This document shows positions 37,491 to 63,717 of a DNA stretch of 64,000 nt, in pieces. This stretch comes from Pseudidiomarina taiwanensis. GTDB lineage: Bacteria; Pseudomonadota; Gammaproteobacteria; Enterobacterales; Alteromonadaceae. The translations under genes were made by a program, and so were the position numbers. The stretch spans positions 186,001-250,000 of the forward strand of contig NZ_PIQG01000002.1 in assembly GCF_003987435.1 (NCBI RefSeq). The letters are read 5' to 3'. Under the pieces are notes generated by a model. The model ran no database searches. It saw nothing but the letters and a program-made list of their open reading frames with translations, and was not told where the DNA came from. Each line of letters opens with the position of its first letter. Within the stretch, counting starts at the first letter, position 1.

Positions 37491-38809
37491 TGGAATTGCT
37501 CCGATTTATTACCTGCGGTAGCGTCGATGACGGCAAGAGCACCCTGATTGGACGGTTGCTGCATGACAGCCAAAAAGTCTACACCGACCAACTCAATGCG
37601 CTACACAAAAATGCCGCCGGTGAGGTCGATCTCGCACACCTAGTCGACGGCCTGCAAAGCGAGCGTGAACAAGGCATCACCATCGATGTGGCGTACCGCT
37701 ATTTCAGCACCGAGAAGCGCAAATTTATCATCGCTGACACCCCAGGCCATGAGCAGTACACCCGCAATATGGCGACCGGCGCCAGCACTAGCGATCTCGC
37801 GATTATCCTCATCGATGCGGACAAGGGCGTGCTGCAACAAACGCGTCGGCATAGTTACATCGTTAGCTTACTTGGCATTAAGCATGTCATCGTGGCGGTG
37901 AACAAAATGGATTTGGTCGATTTCTCACAAGCCGCTTATAAAGCTATCCAGAGCGACTATCTTAAACTTGCCGGTCATCTCGATATTCCGGACATCCATT
38001 TTGTGCCGATATCAGCGCTAAAAGGCGACAATGTCGTCCACAAAAGTACGAATACACCTTGGTTCCGCGGGCGCACCTTGCTGTCGTACCTCGAGACGCT
38101 ACCCATTCAGCGTCAACGCGACGGCAACTTCCGCTTTCCGGTGCAATATGTGAACCGTCCGGATGCGAATTTCCGCGGCTACGCGGGGACGATCGTATCG
38201 GGCAGCGTGCGCGTTGGCGATACCATTCGCACCTTACCGAGCGGGCAAATCAGTACCGTGAAAAGCATCGTCACCTATGACGGTGAACTTGAGTACGCGG
38301 CGGCTCCGCAGGCGGTGACGCTTACCTTGAACGACGAAATTGATATCAGCCGTGGTGATGTGATTGCGGAGAAAGATGCATTGCCGAATACCAGCTCGCG
38401 ATTGCGCGCGAAAATGGTCTGGCTGCATCAACAAGCCCTAACTCCCGGGCGAGAATACCTAGTGAAGATGGGCTGTAAAGTCACGCGGGGCTATTGCGAG
38501 ACGGTGAAGAATCGGGTCGACGTGAATAGCCAAATTGAGCAGCCGGCGGGCGAGCTTGGCCTGAATGAAATCGGCACGGTTGATATGCATATGCTTGAGC
38601 CGGTCGTATTTGACCGTTACAAGAAAAATAAGGCGATGGGCGCGTTTATCCTAATCGACCCCGTAAGCAACGCCACAGTCGGGGCCGGTATGGTCGCCGC
38701 GCCGTTGGCCGAAAAGGACAGCGAGCCGCACCGCGCCGGATTTATCGAACGCGCACTCAACCGCCTCGTCCGCCGCCTCTACCCACACTGGGGCGCCCGC
38801 CCCGTTTAG
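37490..38809 (+). CDS. cysN: Sulfate adenylyltransferase subunit 1 (GTPase)
   Basis: The 439-residue product is an EF-Tu-like GTPase with G1 [14 protein letters not shown], switch region [16 protein letters not shown]3 [12 protein letters not shown] and G4 NKMDLVD, followed by the beta-barrel domains. It is about 35 residues shorter than the E. coli enzyme, mainly at the N-terminus, starting directly with the G1 strand. GTP hydrolysis drives APS synthesis by CysD. No PAPS reductase or sulfite reductase follows. The set therefore looks aimed at PAPS supply, for example for sulfated glycans, although assimilation genes could be elsewhere. Confidence 0.95.
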
Positions 38810-39441
38810 CTAAATTCGCGCTCGTGAAACCAAAGGTTAAACGCCCATTTTTCACCGGCTGCTACCGGGCATCCGGCATGTAAACTTTGCGGGTGCACGT
38901 CGGTGCTTCCAAAGACTACATTACTAAAAATAAGCAAACGCCCAAATTTTGGTGCAACTTTAATACCTAGCTTGGGGAATTCAGTCTCGCCACCGGCGCT
39001 CACATCATTTAAATAACCCAGAGCGGTCCATAAGCGTTGCCCTCCGCGAGCGGTACAACGTTGACCGCGCTCGGTGGACATATCATACGAATCAAAATGG
39101 GCACGATACTGTTGCTCAGGGCCATAATGAATCACTTGAAACGACTCAGCATGTGAGAGCGGCTTATCGATAGCCTGCGCAACACGTTCCGCTAATTGCA
39201 GGCTAAGCTGGTTACAATCGTGACTCACCCAGTGCACGCTATTGGTGCGACCGTCACTGATCGAACCGGCATTATCGTCACTTACTCGCGCCCGCTGCAT
39301 TTTATCACGAGCGATTTGAACCAAATTTTCCGCTTCGGCTGCAGTGAAAAAGTCATCAATAACAAAAACGTAAGGGTTATCATGTAACTGGTGAATTTGA
39401 TATACGGGTGAATTCGCTGCCGACATCTTGAGCTCCGTCAC
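38806..39441 (-). CDS. 2OG-Fe(II) oxygenase, prolyl 4-hydroxylase-like
   Basis: The 211-residue product has the iron ligands His and Asp in YRAHFDSYD and the distal His in [22 protein letters not shown], where Lys binds 2-oxoglutarate. [12 protein letters not shown]-type N-terminal segments match bacterial P4H-like enzymes. The substrate is unknown. It is convergent with cysN, overlapping by 4 bp. Confidence 0.87.
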
Positions 39442-39447
39442 AAATGT

Positions 39448-40851
39448 TTATCTATTACTAGCAAATTTAACACGAATATCAAAGCGCGAGCGAATTTTCG
39501 CAGCTAAAGCGGCTTGTGCTTGTTCCGTCCCATGTACCAAGCGCACTTCGCCAACGGCGCCAGCGGCGCTGCCGATAAAATCCAATAGCTCAGCTTGGTC
39601 AGCATGAGCAGAGTAGCCGCCTAAGGTATACACTCCAGCACGGATATCCACGCGCTCGCCGTCCAAGATAACGTAGCCACCATCGGGCCCATAACGCTGA
39701 ATATCGCGGCCAGGGGTGCCGGCAGCTTGGTAGCCGACAAAAACCACATCCGTGCGCTCGTCCGGGAGCATCGCGCGCAAGTAATTCACGATCCGCCCGC
39801 CAGTACACATGCCCGAAGCAGCAAGCACAATACAAGGGTCACCCGAAGCCGCTAGGTAATCCAAAATACGCTCATGCTCAGCATGGCTCTCGACCACCAG
39901 CAGACGCTCAAAATTCAGCGGATGGCGGTCATCGCCAAGGCGCGCCCGCGACTGCGCATCCCAAAGTGGCTTCAAGCGCCGATACATGGCGGTATAGCGC
40001 GATGCCAAAGGCGAATCCAGAATCACCGTCATCTTGCGCCAGCGCTCGTCTTGCGCGGCATAGCGATGAATCAAATCCTCCAATTCATACAGTAGCTCTT
40101 GGGTGCGACCAATGCTAAAGGCCGGAACAAGTACAGTGCCACCATTGGCAAACGCCCGCTCCACCACCAAGCGCAAGCGCTCGGCGCGGTCAGCACGGGA
40201 TTCATGCAGGCGGTCGCCATAGGTACTCTCAAGCACCAGCACATCGGCCCGCTCAAGCGGCGCCGGGTCGTTTAAAAGCGGCGTACCCCTGCAGCCAATA
40301 TCGCCGCTAAACACCACCCGTCGACCATCGGCAACATCAAACTCGACGTAAGCCGAGCCAAGAATATGCCCGGCCTCACGCAAGCGCATCTGCAACGGCT
40401 CAGCCTCCAGCGAAACCTCAACCCACTCATCATAGCCGACCGGTCGCAGCCACTCATGCAGCAAGCGCAACATCGCCGCTACCGCCTCAGCGCCCGCCCC
40501 CATACCGACCTTCATAGCATCTTCAATTACCAAAGGTAGCAATGCCGCAGTCGCCTCAGTACAGTAAATCGGCGCCCGAAATCCGGCCATAAACAACCAA
40601 GGTAAGCGCCCACAGTGGTCGATATGACAGTGAGTAAGCACTAACCCACGCACCGCATCCAGCGCGAACTCAATCTCCTGCCCCGCCGAATCCCTCGAAC
40701 CCGAACCAGACCCCGCAAAAGCAACCTCCGCCCCCTGAAACAGTCCGCAATCGATCAGCAGCGAATCACGATCGGTAACAAAGAACTCATGGCAAGAGCC
40801 CGTCACGCCATCCCCGGCGCCGTGGTGAAGAATTTGCAAAGTAACCTCCAT
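39448..40851 (-). CDS. Metallo-beta-lactamase fold RNA exonuclease (beta-CASP)
   Basis: The 467-residue product has the MBL motif THCHIDHCGRLPWL near residue 95 and the beta-CASP block (LVPAFSIGRTQELLYEL, then SGMCTGGRIVNYLR). A C-terminal HxH-type strand GYSAHADQAELLDF completes the site. These enzymes (CPSF-like YsaA/Ysh1 group) are RNA-processing nucleases. It lies 6 bp upstream of the 2OG oxygenase gene on the same strand. A palindrome copy lies just upstream of its start. Confidence 0.9.
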   Translation of the reverse strand: MEVTLQILHHGAGDGVTGSCHEFFVTDRDSLLIDCGLFQGAEVAFAGSGSGSRDSAGQEIEFALDAVRGLVLTHCHIDHCGRLPWLFMAGFRAPIYCTEATAALLPLVIEDAMKVGMGAGAEAVAAMLRLLHEWLRPVGYDEWVEVSLEAEPLQMRLREAGHILGSAYVEFDVADGRRVVFSGDIGCRGTPLLNDPAPLERADVLVLESTYGDRLHESRADRAERLRLVVERAFANGGTVLVPAFSIGRTQELLYELEDLIHRYAAQDERWRKMTVILDSPLASRYTAMYRRLKPLWDAQSRARLGDDRHPLNFERLLVVESHAEHERILDYLAASGDPCIVLAASGMCTGGRIVNYLRAMLPDERTDVVFVGYQAAGTPGRDIQRYGPDGGYVILDGERVDIRAGVYTLGGYSAHADQAELLDFIGSAAGAVGEVRLVHGTEQAQAALAAKIRSRFDIRVKFASNR

Positions 40852-40906: not shown

Positions 40907-42223
40907 TCACACCGAACTCAAAGCAACAAAGCACGCCAACCCAGCAGCGAACCATACCAATGAAATGATCTTGCTAGCGCCAATCGGTTGCCATAAGATC
41001 GACGCCATAACCGTCTTAACTGTCCAAAATACCAGTGCCCCAAGCAGCAGACTAACAATCGCACCAGCTGCGGCATAAACAGGGATCAGCCACCATGCGA
41101 AAAACAATTGCAGCGCCAACCCAGAAACCATAGCCAAAGGGCTCACCCAAGTCACGCGGCGCAACTCAATCCCAATTGCGGAAACACGCTGTAGCGCCAT
41201 GAGAATCGGCTTCAAAGCAGTCGCTGCAACAAGATATGGCACTTGTTCATAACTTGCCGGTAACACCCACCACAACACTACACTTGCGAGTGCCGCAACC
41301 ACAACAAAGCACAGCGCCAGCAGTGTTAGTTGCAATGCCCGACGAGGTAACCAAGGTAACTCACCAGAACTCTGATAAGATTTGTAAACCTCAGGTAACC
41401 ACACCGTATTAAATACCTGACCAGCCATACTACCAACACTGCCAACAGCCACTGCCATAGCATATATCGCCATCGAACTGAGACCGTGCCAAGCAGTTAA
41501 CAGCACCGCACCCAAAGCGCCCATTGCCCAATACAACCCCTCAGACAGTAGCAAGGGTCGTGCATAGGTCAACATCGCACCAAATCGCTGCCGCCATACC
41601 GCAGCAAACCAATCGCGGCGCAGCGCAAACGCCTGGCTCAACTGAGTTCGAATTAACCACAATAACACAGCAGTATTAAGCAGCTCCGCAACAAACCATA
41701 ATGTCAGCAATTGCTGAGCAGAGCGCAATCCTTGACCGTTGCTAAACCACCACATCGCAAGCAGCAACAGCAACCAAACCACCCGACCACCAATTTGCAT
41801 CAAAGCAAAAGCTCGCGCTAACTGGCTTAACCGTAAAAAGCTCGTGCCCCACTGCATTATCATTAATATAGGCAGCATGAACCAGATCGCTGAGGGCGGG
41901 CTAAACCCACTAAAGATGCTAACCATCGGCGCGGTGAGCGCAAACATTACAACTGCAATAAGCCCACCTAAAACGAGTGCAACAATAAATAATTGGGCAA
42001 GTAGTTGTTGCTGCTCCGGCACAGATAATTCATGAAAATCTCGCACCAAAGCATGCCCCAAGCCCTGCCCTGCTAGCAGCACCCCAAACCCCAATGCGAG
42101 TTGCCACAAAGCAAATTGAGCCAATAATTCAGGCGCCACGAGCCAGCTCATTAAAGGCAAAGTCACAGCCCGCAAAGCCAAACTAACAGAAGTGCTTAAA
42201 CCAAACGATACCAATGTTATCAC
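40907..42223 (-). CDS. Polysaccharide flippase-like membrane protein (MOP superfamily)
   Basis: The 438-residue product is strongly hydrophobic with about 12 predicted membrane spans. The N-terminus MITLVSFGLSTSVSLALRAVTLPL matches the first helix of Wzx-type translocases. It is divergent from the 861-residue fusion gene with only 93 bp between starts and is separate from the main O-antigen cluster. It probably flips a lipid-linked unit made or modified by its neighbours. Confidence 0.82.
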   Translation of the reverse strand: MITLVSFGLSTSVSLALRAVTLPLMSWLVAPELLAQFALWQLALGFGVLLAGQGLGHALVRDFHELSVPEQQQLLAQLFIVALVLGGLIAVVMFALTAPMVSIFSGFSPPSAIWFMLPILMIMQWGTSFLRLSQLARAFALMQIGGRVVWLLLLLAMWWFSNGQGLRSAQQLLTLWFVAELLNTAVLLWLIRTQLSQAFALRRDWFAAVWRQRFGAMLTYARPLLLSEGLYWAMGALGAVLLTAWHGLSSMAIYAMAVAVGSVGSMAGQVFNTVWLPEVYKSYQSSGELPWLPRRALQLTLLALCFVVVAALASVVLWWVLPASYEQVPYLVAATALKPILMALQRVSAIGIELRRVTWVSPLAMVSGLALQLFFAWWLIPVYAAAGAIVSLLLGALVFWTVKTVMASILWQPIGASKIISLVWFAAGLACFVALSSV

Positions 42224-42316
42224 TTTAGTTATTCCATAAAAATTTAAGCACTAATTTATTGAACATAATGGAAATATCTGCGTTAATATTGTTAAACAAA
42301 ACCAATATAGCAAATC

Positions 42317-44902
42317 ATGGCAGTCGTTAGTCAGATTTTGATACTAGCTGCAGGTAATTCGCAGCGATTTCGTGCAACCGCTCCAACAGCAATCGTACAA
42401 CAATTTCAACACAAAGCATTAGTTCCTATCTGGGATAGTCGCGGTAGCTTGATGCTGCTGCTGGACCACTTAGTAGAGCTTGGAGTTGAACCTAACCACA
42501 TTTACATCGCGACAGGCTGTGCTGCTCCTCTGCTTAGTGCGACCGTAACTCATCGTCATCCACAGCTCAAGTGTCTTGCGCCACACACAGATTTTACCAA
42601 GCGAAGCATGATGCAAACCTTACAGCACAGTTTCCGGCAATTGCCTCAGCGACCAACATGGGTACTCTTTGCGGATACCCTCTATAGCAGAGAGTTTTTA
42701 GACAAAACCGTTGCCCAACCATTAACTCGCAGCACAATTGCTTGCACTAAACTGCGCGACGACGAGCAAACGCCAACCGAGGTTACAGTAACAGTAGCAG
42801 CGAACAAAGTTCACGCGTTCGATTCAACCGAGGTGCCAACCCACACCATGGCTCACGCCGTATTCTGGCCAGCACCACAAACGATCCACGAGCTAATGTC
42901 GGCCCCGAGTCAACAGAAGCAATGGCAAGTTTTAGCGCGGCAGCAAGAGCCTGTGGAAGTGATTGAGGTTCCTGAGTTTGCAGCAACTGATATCGATACC
43001 TATGCCGACTTGCTCGCTTTGCGCCCACAAGTGAATGAGCAAGTACTCGATTATTTTGAGCATAATCTCAATAAAGATAAACGCAGCGATGCCAACGCCG
43101 ACCAAATGGACGGCTCTTACTACTTTAAACAATGTGAGTCAGAACAAGCCGCCCGTCACGAAGCCGCTGTACTTAGGTTGCTCCAAAAGCACTTGCCAAA
43201 CTACACCCCCGCTCTAGTTCGTTGTAAAGGGCGAGAATTAGTGGTTGAGGCCGTGCGTGGCATCCGTCTTTATGACTTGCTACGGCAATTGCAGCAACCC
43301 AAATATAGCGAGATTAAAGCCTGTCTTATGCAGCGTTGCAACGAACGCCTGCAGGCAATCCAAGCTGTTCTTGAACAGCACAAGAATACTCTCACCCAAG
43401 AGCCTTACCCATTTCAACAACAAGTAGGGCAACTGCTGGGAAGTATCTGTCAGTTATTAGATATCAAAGCACCCGCTACCCAAGAGCTCGCAAAACTTGA
43501 GCAGCAGTGGAACCAGCTTTGCTGTATTCCATTTCGGGATGCAACGCCCAAAAACATAATTCTTGCCGACCCCGAGTTGTGCTCGACGCTAAACCATCAA
43601 GAGCGCCAAAATAATCTGCAGCAACGACTCGACGGTTCCATCACCTATTGGCAGCAACTACCAATTATGGATATCGACTTCACCAGCACGAAACATCTAA
43701 GCAGTCGCGATGATGACCTGCTTAGCCTTCATAGCCATGCGGTACAATTTAAGTTTGCGCCAGGTCAACCGAACTTGGGCGAAGCCCATCAAATTCCCGA
43801 GCCCTTAACATTATTGGTGCGATATTTACGCTTTGGTGGGCGCAAGTTTATGTACAAGTTGTTAAACCCTAGCGGCTATCGACAACGCTTTCGTTACGAC
43901 GACCCACAGTTTTACTTCGAGGCTTTGGTCCGTTTCCTTGCCAATGACTTCGCTCAAGACTTCCCAAGCACCTTTCGTTGTTTGGTGGAAATTCGCAATA
44001 AAGCAGCGCTTTGGCAAGGAGTTATGCCAAATCTAAATGCGTTCGAATACAGCCAGGCACAACCCCGCTATTGGCAAGAGAGTCCGCTCGAGTTTACCCA
44101 GCTAGACACGTTATACAAATTAATCGTCAGACGCCCCTATCGGCGCAGTGCTGTGGCAAAAGACCTAAGCGATGATATTTATCGTAAACTGGCTGCGGCT
44201 ATCGCCACTCAAGAGCCGATTAAATTTAGCGTACCGTTTGGCGGCTATAAACATCCCGACGCGCCTGCTAGTCCAAAACCTAATTTAGCAGAGACATTTT
44301 GGCTTGAATACCTACGTGAATATGCCGCACCATTGGCAGAGCTCCACACCGCAGGAGTTGAATTTACGCTAACCTATACCAGTGGTGTAATCGAAAACAT
44401 TAATGGCATTTCGCAAGCGGACCAACAAGCTTATCTTGAAGAACTTGAGGCGCTCTGTGACCAATTAAGTTGCGACAAGATCCGCATTGGTTTGTTTGAT
44501 ATCGCGCAATTAATTGGCGGCACTGAACAGGCACGCAAGCAGATGTTCAAAACCTATGAAACGTTTATACAGACTGGACGGGTGGCAAATGATGAGGCGC
44601 TTAAAAGTGCACAGAGAAATCTACAGTCGTCACGACCTGCAGAGCACGCTGCGCTATTGTGTGAAGCGATGGAGAGCTTGCCGGCGCGCCGTAACTTTAA
44701 TAAATACTCAGAGCATATACAGATAAGCAATAAAAAAGACGCGCTATGCCTGCATTTGGGCTCGTGCCAGACTTCGGTGGTACAGCCTTGGGTTGGGGTA
44801 GGGGTTTATGATGAAAAGGGGCGCCGCCGTATTTTATCGGTGCGACAATGGCGGGAGAGTCAGCTCTCTGGTATACCAAATTCTACGTGCATACCTAAGT
44901 GA
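42317..44902 (+). CDS. Three-domain fusion: LicC-like nucleotidyltransferase, LicA/APH-like kinase, DIT1/PvcA-like C-terminus
   Basis: The 861-residue product divides into three parts. Residues 1-235 look like a nucleotidyltransferase: ILILAAGNSQRFRA, KALVPIWD and VLFADTLYS at the metal-binding position. Residues 255-480 look like a choline-kinase/APH fold: Lys271 in YYFKQ, Glu282, a Brenner-type motif FRDATPKNII with Asp408 and Asn413, and MDIDF with Asp452/Asp454. Residues about 600-861 resemble isonitrile synthases: PIKFSVPFGGYKHP, AETFWLEYLREYAAPLAELH, ISQADQQAYLEELEAL and a late PWVGVGVYDEKGR. The first two domains would mimic LicC-LicA, activating a small alcohol as CDP derivative, and a LicD-type gene lies tail to tail. 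The third assignment rests on pattern memory and is the least certain. Confidence 0.7.
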   Translation: MAVVSQILILAAGNSQRFRATAPTAIVQQFQHKALVPIWDSRGSLMLLLDHLVELGVEPNHIYIATGCAAPLLSATVTHRHPQLKCLAPHTDFTKRSMMQTLQHSFRQLPQRPTWVLFADTLYSREFLDKTVAQPLTRSTIACTKLRDDEQTPTEVTVTVAANKVHAFDSTEVPTHTMAHAVFWPAPQTIHELMSAPSQQKQWQVLARQQEPVEVIEVPEFAATDIDTYADLLALRPQVNEQVLDYFEHNLNKDKRSDANADQMDGSYYFKQCESEQAARHEAAVLRLLQKHLPNYTPALVRCKGRELVVEAVRGIRLYDLLRQLQQPKYSEIKACLMQRCNERLQAIQAVLEQHKNTLTQEPYPFQQQVGQLLGSICQLLDIKAPATQELAKLEQQWNQLCCIPFRDATPKNIILADPELCSTLNHQERQNNLQQRLDGSITYWQQLPIMDIDFTSTKHLSSRDDDLLSLHSHAVQFKFAPGQPNLGEAHQIPEPLTLLVRYLRFGGRKFMYKLLNPSGYRQRFRYDDPQFYFEALVRFLANDFAQDFPSTFRCLVEIRNKAALWQGVMPNLNAFEYSQAQPRYWQESPLEFTQLDTLYKLIVRRPYRRSAVAKDLSDDIYRKLAAAIATQEPIKFSVPFGGYKHPDAPASPKPNLAETFWLEYLREYAAPLAELHTAGVEFTLTYTSGVIENINGISQADQQAYLEELEALCDQLSCDKIRIGLFDIAQLIGGTEQARKQMFKTYETFIQTGRVANDEALKSAQRNLQSSRPAEHAALLCEAMESLPARRNFNKYSEHIQISNKKDALCLHLGSCQTSVVQPWVGVGVYDEKGRRRILSVRQWRESQLSGIPNSTCIPK

Positions 44903-45729
44903 CGCTCGGCTGGTGGTGGCGGTTGCATGTAGTCACCATAAAGGTTACTCAACACCTGATGGTAATTGTGTGGTACAGGGAAATCGAAATCATAAAGATC
45001 GGCTGTAACAGTGTCAGTAATCGAGTTCAGCGGTCGAATCCGAGGTAAACGTTGTTTAGCGGCTCGAGGCATGGATACCAAACAAGCAACATAACCGGTT
45101 GGTTTTTTCTTGCGTGAATAGAAAGTGACTAGCCGATAATAAAGCTTCATGAAGGTACTTTTAGGAACCACTCGGAGAATATGATAAGCAAGCCAAGCAA
45201 TTGATTGTTGCCAGAGTGGACGTCTATTTTTAAATAAACGCTTTTGCGCTCCAACAAGACGCAACAGTACAAGTAGTTTGAAGTTGGCGCAAAGCCACAT
45301 ATGGAACCTGCCAAGCAAACTATTCGGTTGCACCGCATCAAATGGGAAAACATCCACTGCAATCCCCTCATGAGTCGTCGGGTTTGGCAGTTGCTCTGGC
45401 ACATTCTCTGAAATCCGCCGAGTGCCGCGCAGACGCAGCTTGGTCACCAATGAAAAATAACTCTCTTCACTTAGCCAGTGTTGTAGAAAGTATCGCTTGG
45501 GTAAGCTCTGCTCAGCCACTCGCATAAAACGATCAAAGTCTGCCCGCGGTAAACAAATATCAGCATCTTTATCCCATCCAATTAATTGCTGCTCACGAAT
45601 CGCACCAAGCAAGGTGCCAGCTGCCAACTGATAATTCAGCTTATGACTTCGGCATAAGGTATCAAGATCGACCAACATCTCTAGTAAAGCAGCGTGTAAA
45701 GCAGGGTTTTGAGACGTGGATTTAGGCAT
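44860..45729 (-). CDS. LicD family phosphotransferase
   Basis: The 289-residue product has the LicD core QLAAGTLLGAIREQQLIGWD, then DKDADICLPRADFDRFM with the metal-binding acidic cluster. LicD proteins transfer phosphocholine or similar phospho-alcohols from CDP donors to glycans. The 3' end overlaps the convergent fusion gene by 43 bp. Beside a LicC/LicA-like fusion it completes an activation-and-transfer set. The donor may be something other than choline. Confidence 0.88.
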   Translation of the reverse strand: MPKSTSQNPALHAALLEMLVDLDTLCRSHKLNYQLAAGTLLGAIREQQLIGWDKDADICLPRADFDRFMRVAEQSLPKRYFLQHWLSEESYFSLVTKLRLRGTRRISENVPEQLPNPTTHEGIAVDVFPFDAVQPNSLLGRFHMWLCANFKLLVLLRLVGAQKRLFKNRRPLWQQSIAWLAYHILRVVPKSTFMKLYYRLVTFYSRKKKPTGYVACLVSMPRAAKQRLPRIRPLNSITDTVTADLYDFDFPVPHNYHQVLSNLYGDYMQPPPPAERHLGMHVEFGIPES

Positions 45730-62279: not shown

Positions 62280-63068
62280 TCAGGCACCGCAGTTGAATAA
62301 ATCGAACATACCCTCTTTTAACGTTTCATTAAAAAAGTTAAGGTCCTCTACAGTGTCTATCTCTAGCCAACCACTCTCAACTGAAACCGCTTTGACCGGC
62401 CAACCCAGATTGATAAGGTGTTGTAAAAAGCTAGTGAGGTACATATTGTTGAAATCTTTACCATCGTAATCTGCGTTACGATCCATGCCTTCCCATGTTT
62501 TAACGAGCTCTCTTGCTTTATCAGCAGAAACTTTAATTAAGCCCATATATTGTCCTTGAATCTCATCATAGGAATTTGCCTTTTTACCAAGTTCTTTGAT
62601 GAGATCACCTTCTAACTTCAGGGTTTCTGCGTCATCAAGTGGATTCTCCATGCGTAATGACCACAAGCGCTTCCACTCCTTGTCGATGGTTAAACAAATA
62701 TCAGCTTTGGCTGCAAGGATAGCATCGAGAATCCGTTGTTCATAAACGATATCACCATAGGTAATTAACACATCAGAACTCCCGTCAAAAAGCTTTTTAG
62801 CACACATCAGCGTGCTTACCATATTGGTTATCGCATAATCTGGATTCAAAATTTTTTTAACTCCTTTACGTACAAGCTTATCTTCTTGATAGCCCGCGAC
62901 AAGAGTGATATCGGTAACTCCTGCAACTTTAAAAGCATCCAACTGATAGTCCACTAGCGATTTACCACATAGCTCAACCATACATTTCGGCTTATCATTC
63001 GTGTACGGTCGTAAGCGCGTGCCCTGACCAGCTGCGAGTATAATGACTCTAATTGAGTTACTACCCAT
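62280..63068 (-). CDS. CTP:phosphoglutamine cytidylyltransferase-like (Cj1416 type)
   Basis: The 262-residue product is a nucleotidyltransferase with VIILAAGQGTRLRPYTNDKP, a metal-site DVLITYGDIVYEQ, WKRLWSLRMENPLDDAET and a NSYDEIQGQYMGLIKVS segment. LicC-type phosphocholine cytidylyltransferases are similar. The overlapping class I amidotransferase and PEP-swivel genes, however, match Campylobacter jejuni Cj1418-1417-1416. In that pathway phosphoglutamine is linked to CMP, and the amidotransferase-like enzyme then releases cytidine diphosphoramidate. It overlaps the hydrolase gene by 8 bp. Confidence 0.8.
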   Translation of the reverse strand: MGSNSIRVIILAAGQGTRLRPYTNDKPKCMVELCGKSLVDYQLDAFKVAGVTDITLVAGYQEDKLVRKGVKKILNPDYAITNMVSTLMCAKKLFDGSSDVLITYGDIVYEQRILDAILAAKADICLTIDKEWKRLWSLRMENPLDDAETLKLEGDLIKELGKKANSYDEIQGQYMGLIKVSADKARELVKTWEGMDRNADYDGKDFNNMYLTSFLQHLINLGWPVKAVSVESGWLEIDTVEDLNFFNETLKEGMFDLFNCGA

Positions 63069-63717
63069 TTGATTTCAAATCCTTGTCTTGAAAATTTTCA
63101 TTCTGAAAGTGAGCTTTAATAAGTGCTAGGTCGCTTGCCTTAAAAGGGTTTTCACGCTCGGGGTGCCACATAATACCGAGCCACCTTTTTTCCTTATGAC
63201 GAAACGCCTCTACGATATTATCTTCGGTGGTCGCCAACACTTCAAAAGTGTTTGGACAATCAACCCGCAATATCGCTTGATTATGATAAGAATTAACTTC
63301 ATCAAAATTGTGCTCGCGCGCCCATTGCCCATTCAGTATATGTATTGTCGCAACATGTCCCGAACAATCTCGAAGAAGGCCACCTGAAACATGAAATAAG
63401 AATTGCATCCCTCGACAAACACCTAACACAGGAAGATCATGACGGTCTGCGTATAAAAGCGCCTCCTTTTCAATGGCGTCGCGGAAAGGCGCCGAACCAA
63501 TATCATTACCGCCACTTAAAATTAAGCCGTCTATACCAATTTCAGCCAGAAAACCTGAAACATCAGTTAAATGGCTAGGTAGAACAATTGGTAAGAAACC
63601 GATTTGTTCTAGCAGCTCAGTCCACTTCGTATCGAGCGCATCGCGCCACTCTTCTCTTCCGGCGACTTTATCGTACCGTTGACTTATTGCGATAAGCTTT
63701 TTGGTAGCTTTAGTCAT
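63061..63717 (-). CDS. Class I glutamine amidotransferase-like hydrolase (gamma-glutamyl-CDP-amidate hydrolase, Cj1417 type)
   Basis: The 218-residue product has ISQRYDKV at the N-terminus, GLILSGGNDIG (oxyanion loop), nucleophile Cys in VLGVCRGMQFLFH and the His-Glu pair in IMWHPERENPF. The general family is gamma-glutamyl-GABA hydrolase. Being sandwiched between a cytidylyltransferase and a PEP-swivel protein with overlapping ends points to the Cj1417 role, cutting glutamate from gamma-glutamyl-CDP-amidate. The start overlaps the upstream stop (TAATG). Confidence 0.8.
   Translation of the reverse strand: MTKATKKLIAISQRYDKVAGREEWRDALDTKWTELLEQIGFLPIVLPSHLTDVSGFLAEIGIDGLILSGGNDIGSAPFRDAIEKEALLYADRHDLPVLGVCRGMQFLFHVSGGLLRDCSGHVATIHILNGQWAREHNFDEVNSYHNQAILRVDCPNTFEVLATTEDNIVEAFRHKEKRWLGIMWHPERENPFKASDLALIKAHFQNENFQDKDLKSNG

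What the first reader, a model, noticed from the sequence alone, without database searches (positions are those of the whole stretch)
42317..44902. Fusion of LicC-like, LicA-like and isonitrile-synthase-like domains
One 861-residue protein appears to hold a nucleotidyltransferase (1-235), a choline-kinase/APH-type kinase with Lys271, Asp408/Asn413 and Asp452/Asp454, and a C-terminal region (600-861) whose landmarks follow the DIT1/PvcA isonitrile synthase pattern (PIKFSVPFGGYKHP, AETFWLEYL, QAYLEELEAL, PWVGVGV). If right, a ribulose-phosphate-using type of domain is joined to a CDP-alcohol activation enzyme, which I do not know from any described pathway. The product could be a new phospho-alcohol or isonitrile-bearing group for a surface glycan.
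Basis: partly seen in the sequence, partly recalled or inferred. Interest (0 to 1): 0.85.

Follow-up and report, generated by a model that had tools for sequence, protein, structure and literature searches.

The report
Three-enzyme fusion beside a LicD gene
One bacterial protein joins an enzyme part of the phosphocholine-activation type, a probable kinase part and a distant relative of the enzymes that make isonitriles, and it lies beside a LicD-type transferase gene, which suggests an undescribed chemical group being made and hung on a cell-surface sugar.

Summary
The ORF is real: 861 aa at 42317-44902; a Thiocapsa imhoffii protein of 883 aa keeps the same three parts at 48% identity. N-part: MobA/LicC-type nucleotidyltransferase. 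Middle: looks like an APH/protein-kinase-like kinase, but weakly (Pfam APH E 0.008, FRDATPKN loop; two profile tests negative). C-part: a true homologue of isonitrile synthases (profile E 4.6e-9 to PIsnA; the eight Foldseek hits at E <= 0.001 are all PvcA/PIsnA). But only 7 of 58 residues invariant in six canonical-type enzymes are kept in all four members of its branch (13 of 58 in the window protein), so an isonitrile product is not shown. The gene is part of a cassette: divergent membrane protein, fusion, overlapping convergent LicD; in Thiocapsa the same cassette has 49.8% GC between adjoining flanks of 61.6 and 63.2%, which points to horizontal transfer. Best reading: a Lic-type pathway that makes, phosphorylates and CDP-activates an unusual amine-derived alcohol for LicD transfer to a glycan. 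Whole fusion seen in two genomes, its end in a third.

The parts
42317..44902 (+). Fusion gene, 861 aa: nucleotidyltransferase - probable kinase - isonitrile-synthase-like domain
   Evidence: full-length homologue of 883 aa in Thiocapsa imhoffii (L006:8204-10855)
42317..43021 (+). Residues 1-235: MobA/LicC-type nucleotidyltransferase domain (ILAAG..RF, K33, FAD120, D225/D227 identical in the two orthologues; roles of these residues recalled)
   Evidence: Pfam NTP_transf_3 E 6.3e-5, under the cut-off (window); 3.1e-7, over the cut-off (Thiocapsa); alignment
43031..44056 (+). Residues 239-580: probable APH/protein-kinase-like kinase (K271, E282, RG 314-315, FRDATPKN 406-413, DID 452-454)
   Evidence: Pfam APH E 0.008, Corramycin phosphotransferase N-lobe E 0.16, motif in 5 of 20000 shuffles; against: (Thiocapsa region)
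44060..44899 (+). Residues 582-861: isonitrile-synthase-like domain, 'GGYK' branch (P640, K645, E659, H677, G680, Y706, H813, S816, S820, Q823, W825, D832)
44860..45729 (-). LicD-family phosphotransferase gene, convergent with the fusion gene and overlapping its last 43 bases
   Evidence: Pfam LicD E 4.8e-30; 61% identical to the Thiocapsa and 66% to the G116 neighbour
40907..42223 (-). Polytopic membrane protein, 438 aa, divergent from the fusion gene; position and size suggest a MOP/Wzx-type flippase but no family matched
   Evidence: 27% identical, E 5e-25, to the Thiocapsa cassette protein; no match in NCBIfam, PHROGs, PDB or Pfam; hydropathy
42224..42316 (.). 93-bp divergent intergenic region between membrane-protein and fusion genes (71 bp in Thiocapsa)
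39448..40851 (-). Beta-CASP/RMMBL metallo-hydrolase; missing with the cassette at the corresponding place of G098 and not in the Thiocapsa cassette: probably a passenger, not a part

Best explanation
The protein is a three-domain enzyme of a Lic-type pathway. The kinase domain phosphorylates the hydroxyl of a small amine-bearing alcohol (ethanolamine, serinol, serine or homoserine are natural candidates), the N-terminal domain transfers CMP from CTP to give a CDP-alcohol, and the product of the overlapping LicD gene moves the phospho-alcohol to a glycan that the divergent membrane protein may export. The C-terminal domain has the fold of isonitrile synthases, which join an amine nitrogen to a carbon of ribulose-5-phosphate, and modifies the amine of the alcohol before or after activation. 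The product could be an isonitrile, a formamide or another pentulose-derived N-substituent. Shown here: the gene, its homologue, the homology of the first and third domains, the LicD neighbour and the conserved cassette. Inferred: kinase activity, order of steps, substrate, CTP as donor, glycan acceptor, and use of ribulose-5-phosphate.
For: Nucleotidyltransferase. Isonitrile-synthase homology: hhalign of 4 branch members against 6 canonical-type enzymes, probability 94.2, E 1.2e-7 over 108 columns; PDB hmmsearch E 4.6e-9, 6.2e-9 (PIsnA) and 2.2e-8 (PvcA), next hit E 0.072 of 177,635 sequences; the branch profile finds the window and 3 further proteins in 398 genomes, and those 3 are Pfam DIT1_PvcA proteins at 277-286 bits; Foldseek, 8 chains at E <= 0.001, four of PvcA and four of PIsnA, probability 1.00. 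The branch keeps its own polar residues in four genera (K645, E659, H677, H813, S816, S820, Q823, W825, D832), which argues for retained catalysis. Cassette of membrane protein, fusion and LicD in the same order and orientation in the window and Thiocapsa, with LicD also in G116. The LicD-family enzyme Mf1 takes CDP-choline and CDP-ethanolamine (PMC11982090, passages). Lic-1 and TacF precedents: PMC10434233, PMC13385700 (passages). Stand-alone branch members in Rhizobium and Streptacidiphilus sit with a class-III aminotransferase (annotated as diaminobutyrate transaminase in the Rhizobium record; 57% identical between the two) and an MFS protein (44%), which fits an amine substrate.
Against: The kinase call is weak: the full-length scan gave no APH hit at E <= 1, the Thiocapsa region none at E <= 10, hhalign with choline-kinase-like proteins 0.5%, and a 7-sequence choline-kinase-like HMM ranked the window region 31st and the Thiocapsa region 193rd among 754 listed decoys and shuffles. 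51 of 58 canonical isonitrile-synthase invariants are not kept throughout the branch. The full-length AlphaFold model failed (pLDDT 36.7); the C-domain model is moderate (64.2), its residues 211-280, which hold the H813-D832 motif, have block means of 31-50, and the Foldseek superpositions are loose (rmsd 7.9-8.6, TM about 0.5). The Thiocapsa cassette is not in an evident glycan cluster in the 58 kb read, apart from one nucleotide-sugar-epimerase-like gene about 14 kb away (by eye; only ORFs of 250 aa or more were listed in the outer parts). The membrane protein matches no flippase family.
Confidence: 0.55

Rival explanations
1. Isonitrile reading in full: the C-domain makes an isonitrile from the amine of ethanolamine, serine or a similar compound and ribulose-5-phosphate, and LicD hangs a phospho-isocyano-alcohol on a surface glycan.
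For: Same superfamily and fold as PvcA/PIsnA, with R609, P640, K645, E659, G680, Y706 and W825 kept; the IsnA family's known reaction uses ribulose-5-phosphate and an amine (PMC7949033, abstract and passages).
Against: Most signature residues are lost or changed in the fused members (13 of 58 kept in the window protein). Ligand contacts in PIsnA could not be read: no paper found.
Confidence: 0.2
2. The C-domain is a catalytic relative with a different product, for example N-formylation or simple condensation of a pentulose phosphate with an amine, and the rest of the pathway is as in the best explanation.
For: Retained fold with a different set of kept polar residues. Yeast Dit1 of the same family is drawn as making N-formyl tyrosine in a legend of PMC5974471, though its authors call the product unknown and propose an isocyanide precursor (passages).
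Against: No direct data on the product.
Confidence: 0.4
3. The C-domain has lost catalysis and only binds the substrate or regulates the CDP-alcohol synthetase; the protein is a LicC-LicA-like bifunctional enzyme with an inert tail.
For: Loss of most canonical signature residues.
Against: H, S, Q, W, D and K residues are kept between fused and stand-alone members that are only 21-24% identical; stand-alone members lie in biosynthetic-looking clusters.
Confidence: 0.15
4. The middle domain is not a kinase but an unrelated helical domain; the fusion then joins only a nucleotidyltransferase and an isonitrile-synthase relative, and the phosphate-bearing substrate comes from elsewhere.
For: Negative profile tests; the best Pfam hit of the region is a helical model, BREX_BrxC_helical (E 0.0015 window, 3.1e-5 Thiocapsa, 24.7 against a cut-off of 27 bits).
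Against: Catalytic-loop and DxD motif order, with RGIRLYDLLRQL and PFRDATPKNIIL among the longest identical runs of the two orthologues; Pfam APH and Corramycin phosphotransferase matches.
Confidence: 0.3

Closest known systems
Lic-1 pathway (LicA choline kinase, LicC cytidylyltransferase, LicD transferase) and, in pneumococcus, flippase TacF
   Same: Nucleotidyltransferase of the LicC superfamily, probable kinase, and a LicD gene; a polytopic membrane protein as third partner, as TacF is for phosphocholine teichoic acid (PMC10434233, PMC13385700, passages).
   Different: LicC- and LicA-like parts are in one chain with an isonitrile-synthase-like domain; no recognised choline permease in the cassette; similarity to choline kinases not shown by profile.
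LicCA bifunctional protein of Treponema (recalled; Kent et al. 2004 seen only as a reference-list entry)
   Same: Cytidylyltransferase and kinase in one chain (recalled).
   Different: No third domain; serves phosphatidylcholine synthesis (recalled).
PvcA/IsnA isonitrile synthases (PF05141)
   Same: Fold and N-half sequence.
   Different: Only 7 of 58 canonical invariants kept in the branch; no TauD-type dioxygenase among the cassette genes, whereas 5 of the 6 canonical-type genes used here have one next door; fused to other enzymes. ICS proteins in bacteria are commonly single-domain or fused to a dioxygenase (PMC5974471 section 7).
PntC-Ppm fusions of phosphonate biosynthesis
   Same: A MobA/LicC-type cytidylyltransferase fused to an enzyme that makes its unusual substrate, with LicD-like genes nearby in some loci (PMC6697681, passages).
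   Different: Partner is PEP mutase, product a phosphonate; no kinase.
Stand-alone 'GGYK' relatives in Rhizobium leguminosarum plasmids and Streptacidiphilus jeojiense
   Same: Same branch of the isonitrile-synthase superfamily, same invariant motifs.
   Different: 21-24% identical to the fused domains, single domain, beside aminotransferase and MFS genes; no Lic-type gene seen in the stretches listed.

Membership tests
Isonitrile synthase (PF05141, PvcA/IsnA) | Profile match over Pfam's curated cut-off | tested here: inconclusive
   25.2 bits against 26.4 for the window protein; 26.5 when neighbours in the frame are added; no hit at E <= 1 for the Thiocapsa protein; canonical-type enzymes score 277-286
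Isonitrile synthase (PF05141, PvcA/IsnA) | Fold of PvcA | tested here: met
   Foldseek top 8 chains all PvcA/PIsnA, E 8.2e-8 to 5.8e-6, TM about 0.5, rmsd 7.9-8.6; model of moderate confidence, weak in its last 70 residues
Isonitrile synthase (PF05141, PvcA/IsnA) | Invariant signature residues of canonical-type enzymes | tested here: not met
   7 of 58 invariant columns identical in all four branch members; 5 of 25 within the hhalign-supported part; 13 of 58 in the window protein. The alignment of the C-terminal half is uncertain
Isonitrile synthase (PF05141, PvcA/IsnA) | Isonitrile from amine and ribulose-5-phosphate | not testable with these tools
   needs enzyme assay
LicC/MobA-type nucleotidyltransferase (PF12804) | Profile match | tested here: met
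   31.1 bits against 27 in Thiocapsa; 23.6, under the cut-off, in the window protein; no PDB match for the pair profile at E <= 1
LicC/MobA-type nucleotidyltransferase (PF12804) | CTP as donor, phospho-alcohol as acceptor | not testable with these tools
   needs enzyme assay
Choline kinase / APH kinases (PF01633, PF01636) | Profile match | tested here: inconclusive
   APH E 0.008, 16.4 against 23.2 bits, window region only; negative
Choline kinase / APH kinases (PF01633, PF01636) | Ordered Lys, catalytic D-x4-N, and DxD metal site | tested here: met
   K271, D408/N413, D452/D454, identical in the two full orthologues; pattern chosen after seeing the sequence, and present in only 3 of 7 choline-kinase-like controls
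LicD (PF04991), neighbour gene | Profile match over cut-off | tested here: met
   105.8, 93.1 and 97.9 bits against 22.6 in window, Thiocapsa and G116
Lic-1 pathway | LicB choline permease with the other lic genes | tested here: inconclusive
   No recognised permease among the cassette genes, but the membrane protein is unassigned and the rest of the genome was not searched for LicB
MOP/Wzx flippase (membrane protein 40907-42223) | Profile match to a flippase family | tested here: not met
   No Pfam, PHROGs or PDB match; no hhalign signal with the window's own Wzx-like protein

The most novel reading that the evidence does not exclude
A bacterial surface glycan carries phosphodiester-linked isocyano-alcohol groups: one polypeptide makes the isonitrile from ribulose-5-phosphate and an amino-alcohol, phosphorylates it and activates it with CTP, LicD transfers it, and the whole trait moves between families as a three-gene cassette. 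I know of no isonitrile in a cell-surface polysaccharide and of none carried as a CDP-activated headgroup.
Probability: 0.15. Interest if true: 0.92.

Novelty: new variant of a known kind. Interest (0 to 1): 0.7.

Why it matters
If right, Lic-type decoration is not limited to choline, ethanolamine and phosphonates: bacteria can build an unusual amine-derived headgroup and activate it within one protein. It also shows a 'GGYK' branch of the isonitrile-synthase superfamily with a changed set of conserved residues, found both fused to a CDP-activation enzyme and alone in natural-product-like clusters, which makes the question 'what else can this fold do with a pentulose phosphate and an amine' directly testable. 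A metal-binding or bioorthogonally reactive surface group would be of interest to glycobiology and chemical biology.

Tried and rejected
Full-length AlphaFold on two sequences: pLDDT 36.7, not used. Search of the kinase region in 249 genomes gave five weak hits besides the window; the one I opened lay in an element that looks like IS21 (by eye), and all five were dropped, four of them unopened. Viral-contig scans with the full protein, the C-domain, the kinase region and canonical-type enzymes: no relatives confirmed. Phages: none. The first whole-collection scan with the full protein missed even Thiocapsa, so pattern scans under-count this family. The 855-aa protein of G170 with a choline-kinase match looks like a different fusion and was set aside. 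PF25792 (BrxC helical; E 0.0015 window, 3.1e-5 Thiocapsa, both under its cut-off), XopZ (E 0.001, Thiocapsa only) and other weak hits to the middle region are judged chance matches of helical sequence; this is a judgement, not a test. The 2OG-Fe(II) oxygenase at 38806-39441 was considered as a PvcB-like partner and rejected: another oxygenase family (PF13640, not TauD), present in 12 of 26 genus genomes, of which only the window and G116 gave a fusion match. Of four genus genomes read beside that oxygenase gene only G098 kept a second window gene there (wbpM-like); G105, G116 and G117 were uninformative. Papers: no paper joining isonitrile or isocyanide with LicD or CDP-choline among the 12 listed of 913; the 5 papers naming PF05141 or DIT1_PvcA were seen as a listing, two of them also in passages or a section.
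Full report
Observation. Pfam gives DIT1_PvcA at residues 651-748 (E 1.4e-5; 25.2 bits, cut-off 26.4) and NTP_transf_3 at 8-209 (E 6.3e-5; 23.6, cut-off 27).

Relatives. The full protein matched in 1 of 98 sampled genomes of the window's family (itself), 2 of 26 of the genus (itself and a 98-codon end piece in G116), 1 of 369 sampled of the class (itself), and 1 of 210 of the Thiocapsa family (Thiocapsa itself). A pattern scan of the 84,980-species collection with the C-domain gave 42 pattern matches and 3 relatives: Thiocapsa imhoffii, Rhizobium leguminosarum Vaf-46 and Streptacidiphilus jeojiense. Plasmid records gave 4 Rhizobium leguminosarum matches, phages none. The first scan with the whole protein found none, not even Thiocapsa, so rarity is partly a limit of the method. 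The whole fusion is thus seen in two genomes and its end in a third.

Architecture is real. The Thiocapsa protein (883 aa) aligns end to end at 48% identity. The identical runs of 10 or more residues are LTLLVRYLRFGGRKF (from 497), NLAETFWLEYLREY (656), PIKFSVPFGGYKHP (634), PFRDATPKNIIL (405), RGIRLYDLLRQL (314) and TWVLFADTLY (114): each of the three parts holds at least one.

Cassette. In the window the fusion (+) is flanked by a divergent membrane-protein gene (40907-42223, -) 93 bp away and by a convergent LicD gene (44860-45729, -) whose 3' end overlaps the fusion by 43 bp. In Thiocapsa the same order and orientation are kept (gap 71 bp, overlap 29 bp); in G116 the LicD overlap is 32 bp and the rest of the fusion lies off the contig. 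The LicD proteins are 60-66% identical and over the Pfam cut-off; the membrane proteins are 27% identical (E 5e-25) and of no recognised family. The Thiocapsa cassette has 49.8% GC; the adjoining stretches have 61.6 and 63.2%, and the next ones out 63.7 and 56.1%. In the related genome G098 the 2OG-oxygenase gene is directly followed by the wbpM-like gene, so the window's stretch with metallo-hydrolase, membrane protein, fusion and LicD is missing at that place; three other genus genomes read there were uninformative. The G116 copy lies beside pgl- and zwf-like genes (named by eye). The cassette is thus accessory, and horizontal transfer is the likely explanation.

Nucleotidyltransferase. NTP_transf_3 is over the cut-off in Thiocapsa (31.1 bits). 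Residues ILAAG, K33, D120, D225 and D227 are identical in the two orthologues (their roles are recalled from the family). A profile of the two found no PDB match at E <= 1.

Kinase. Evidence for: Pfam APH E 0.008 over residues 28-182 of the window region, an APH-type N-lobe match to Corramycin phosphotransferase at E 0.16, and an ordered D-x4-N, DxD pattern found in 5 of 20,000 shuffles of the region and 0 of 233 decoy ORFs, but in only 3 of 7 of my choline-kinase-like set, and chosen after the fact. Evidence against: no APH hit for the Thiocapsa region at E <= 10, hhalign with five choline-kinase-like proteins 0.5%, a seven-sequence HMM no better than shuffles (ranks 31 and 193 among 754 listed). 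I call it probable, not shown.

Isonitrile-synthase-like domain. A profile of four branch members (window, Thiocapsa, Streptacidiphilus, Rhizobium) finds PIsnA (E 4.6e-9, 6.2e-9) and PvcA (2.2e-8) as the only PDB sequences under E 0.07. In 398 genomes it finds the window and three more proteins, each a Pfam DIT1_PvcA protein at 277-286 bits. An AlphaFold model from four sequences (pLDDT 64.2, pTM 0.63; residues 211-280 of the domain at block means of 31-50) gives as its Foldseek hits at E <= 0.001 eight chains: four of PvcA and four of PIsnA, the latter solved with L-tyrosine or the isonitrile product (TM about 0.5, rmsd 7.9-8.6). So descent is settled and the fold well supported. Function is not: of 58 columns invariant in the six canonical-type enzymes 7 are identical in all four branch members (R609, P640, K645, E659, G680, Y706, W825), and 13 in the window protein; within the part that hhalign supports the count is 5 of 25; the alignment of the C-terminal half is uncertain. 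In the fused members the ICSDG, RLSIHPQ, S-x-K and TPWH blocks are lost or changed; the stand-alone members keep S-D of ICSDG. The branch keeps its own set (P640-F-G-G-Y-K645, H677, H813-x-G-S816, S820, Q823, W825, D832) although fused and stand-alone members are only 21-24% identical. I read this as an enzyme with another substrate or product rather than a dead domain.

Stand-alone branch members. In a Rhizobium plasmid the 350-aa relative lies with a class-III aminotransferase annotated as diaminobutyrate transaminase, a methyltransferase, MetK, an MFS protein and, further on, a weak HAD-like match; in Streptacidiphilus with a lysine/ornithine N-hydroxylase, a cupin-MetRS protein, DAO, haem-oxygenase-like, ATP-grasp, carbamoyltransferase, class-III aminotransferase and MFS genes. 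Aminotransferase, MFS and the relative are shared at 57, 44 and 51% identity. This points to small non-aromatic amines as substrates of the branch.

Mechanism. Isonitrile synthases of the IsnA type join the amine of L-Trp/L-Tyr to a carbon of ribulose-5-phosphate (PMC7949033, abstract and passages). In Lic-1, LicA phosphorylates choline, LicC makes CDP-choline and LicD transfers phosphocholine to glycans (PMC10434233, passages); TacF flips phosphocholine-modified units (PMC13385700, passages); the LicD-family enzyme Mf1 also uses CDP-ethanolamine (PMC11982090, passages). Nucleotidyltransferases fused to PEP mutase are common in phosphonate clusters (PMC6697681, passages). Put together, the fusion most likely makes a CDP-activated, N-modified amino-alcohol for LicD. 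The N-modification (isonitrile, formamide or other) is open.

Novelty. PF05141 proteins of bacteria in print are commonly single-domain or fused to a dioxygenase (PMC5974471 section 7), fungal ones also to NRPS-like modules (PMC10153163, passages). My searches (two searches showed 15 of 197 and 12 of 913 papers) listed no paper that I could see to be about a fusion with a nucleotidyltransferase or kinase; the library lacks most subscription journals. I file it as a new variant of Lic-type activation with a divergent isonitrile-synthase relative, not as an isonitrile synthase.

Noticed in passing
window 62280-63717 (-) and the next gene outside the window (L035:3718-6786): LicC-like nucleotidyltransferase, class-I amidotransferase/peptidase C26, and a 1022-aa PPDK_N/PEP-utilizer protein in a row. 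This resembles the Campylobacter Cj1416-Cj1418 set for capsular phosphoramidate (gene roles as a set from PMC11800397 passages; the match is my inference), so the same surface locus may carry a second rare phosphate decoration.
   Followed up: partly
L035:6905-7777 (-): A formyl-transferase-like gene (PF00551, E 1.5e-9) next to the phosphoramidate-like set.
   Followed up: no
L008:4271-18911: Streptacidiphilus cluster with N-hydroxylase, cupin-MetRS and DAO (a hydrazine-type trio, recalled), a haem-oxygenase-like protein, carbamoyltransferase and the GGYK relative: a natural-product-like locus whose product I do not know; not looked for in the literature.
   Followed up: partly
L002:7547-12900 and hits H9/H10 (NZ_CP016290.1, NZ_CP018235.1): The GGYK relative is on Rhizobium leguminosarum plasmids; in two Vavilovia formosa records it matches in two pieces under two annotated proteins, and in L007 the frame asked for holds stops, so the gene appears interrupted there.
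   Followed up: no
L004:268-2969: In G116 the fusion/LicD pair lies beside pgl- and zwf-like genes (by eye), on the route to ribulose-5-phosphate; probably a coincidence of position.
   Followed up: no
L048:3993-11998: In G098 the place of the window's surface locus holds very long FG-GAP/VCBS-like repeat proteins after wbpM, quite different from the window (repeat names by eye).
   Followed up: no
L006:6789-11795: Low-GC cassette (49.8%) in a higher-GC Thiocapsa genome, a few kilobases from CRISPR- and CHAT-like genes (names by eye).
   Followed up: partly
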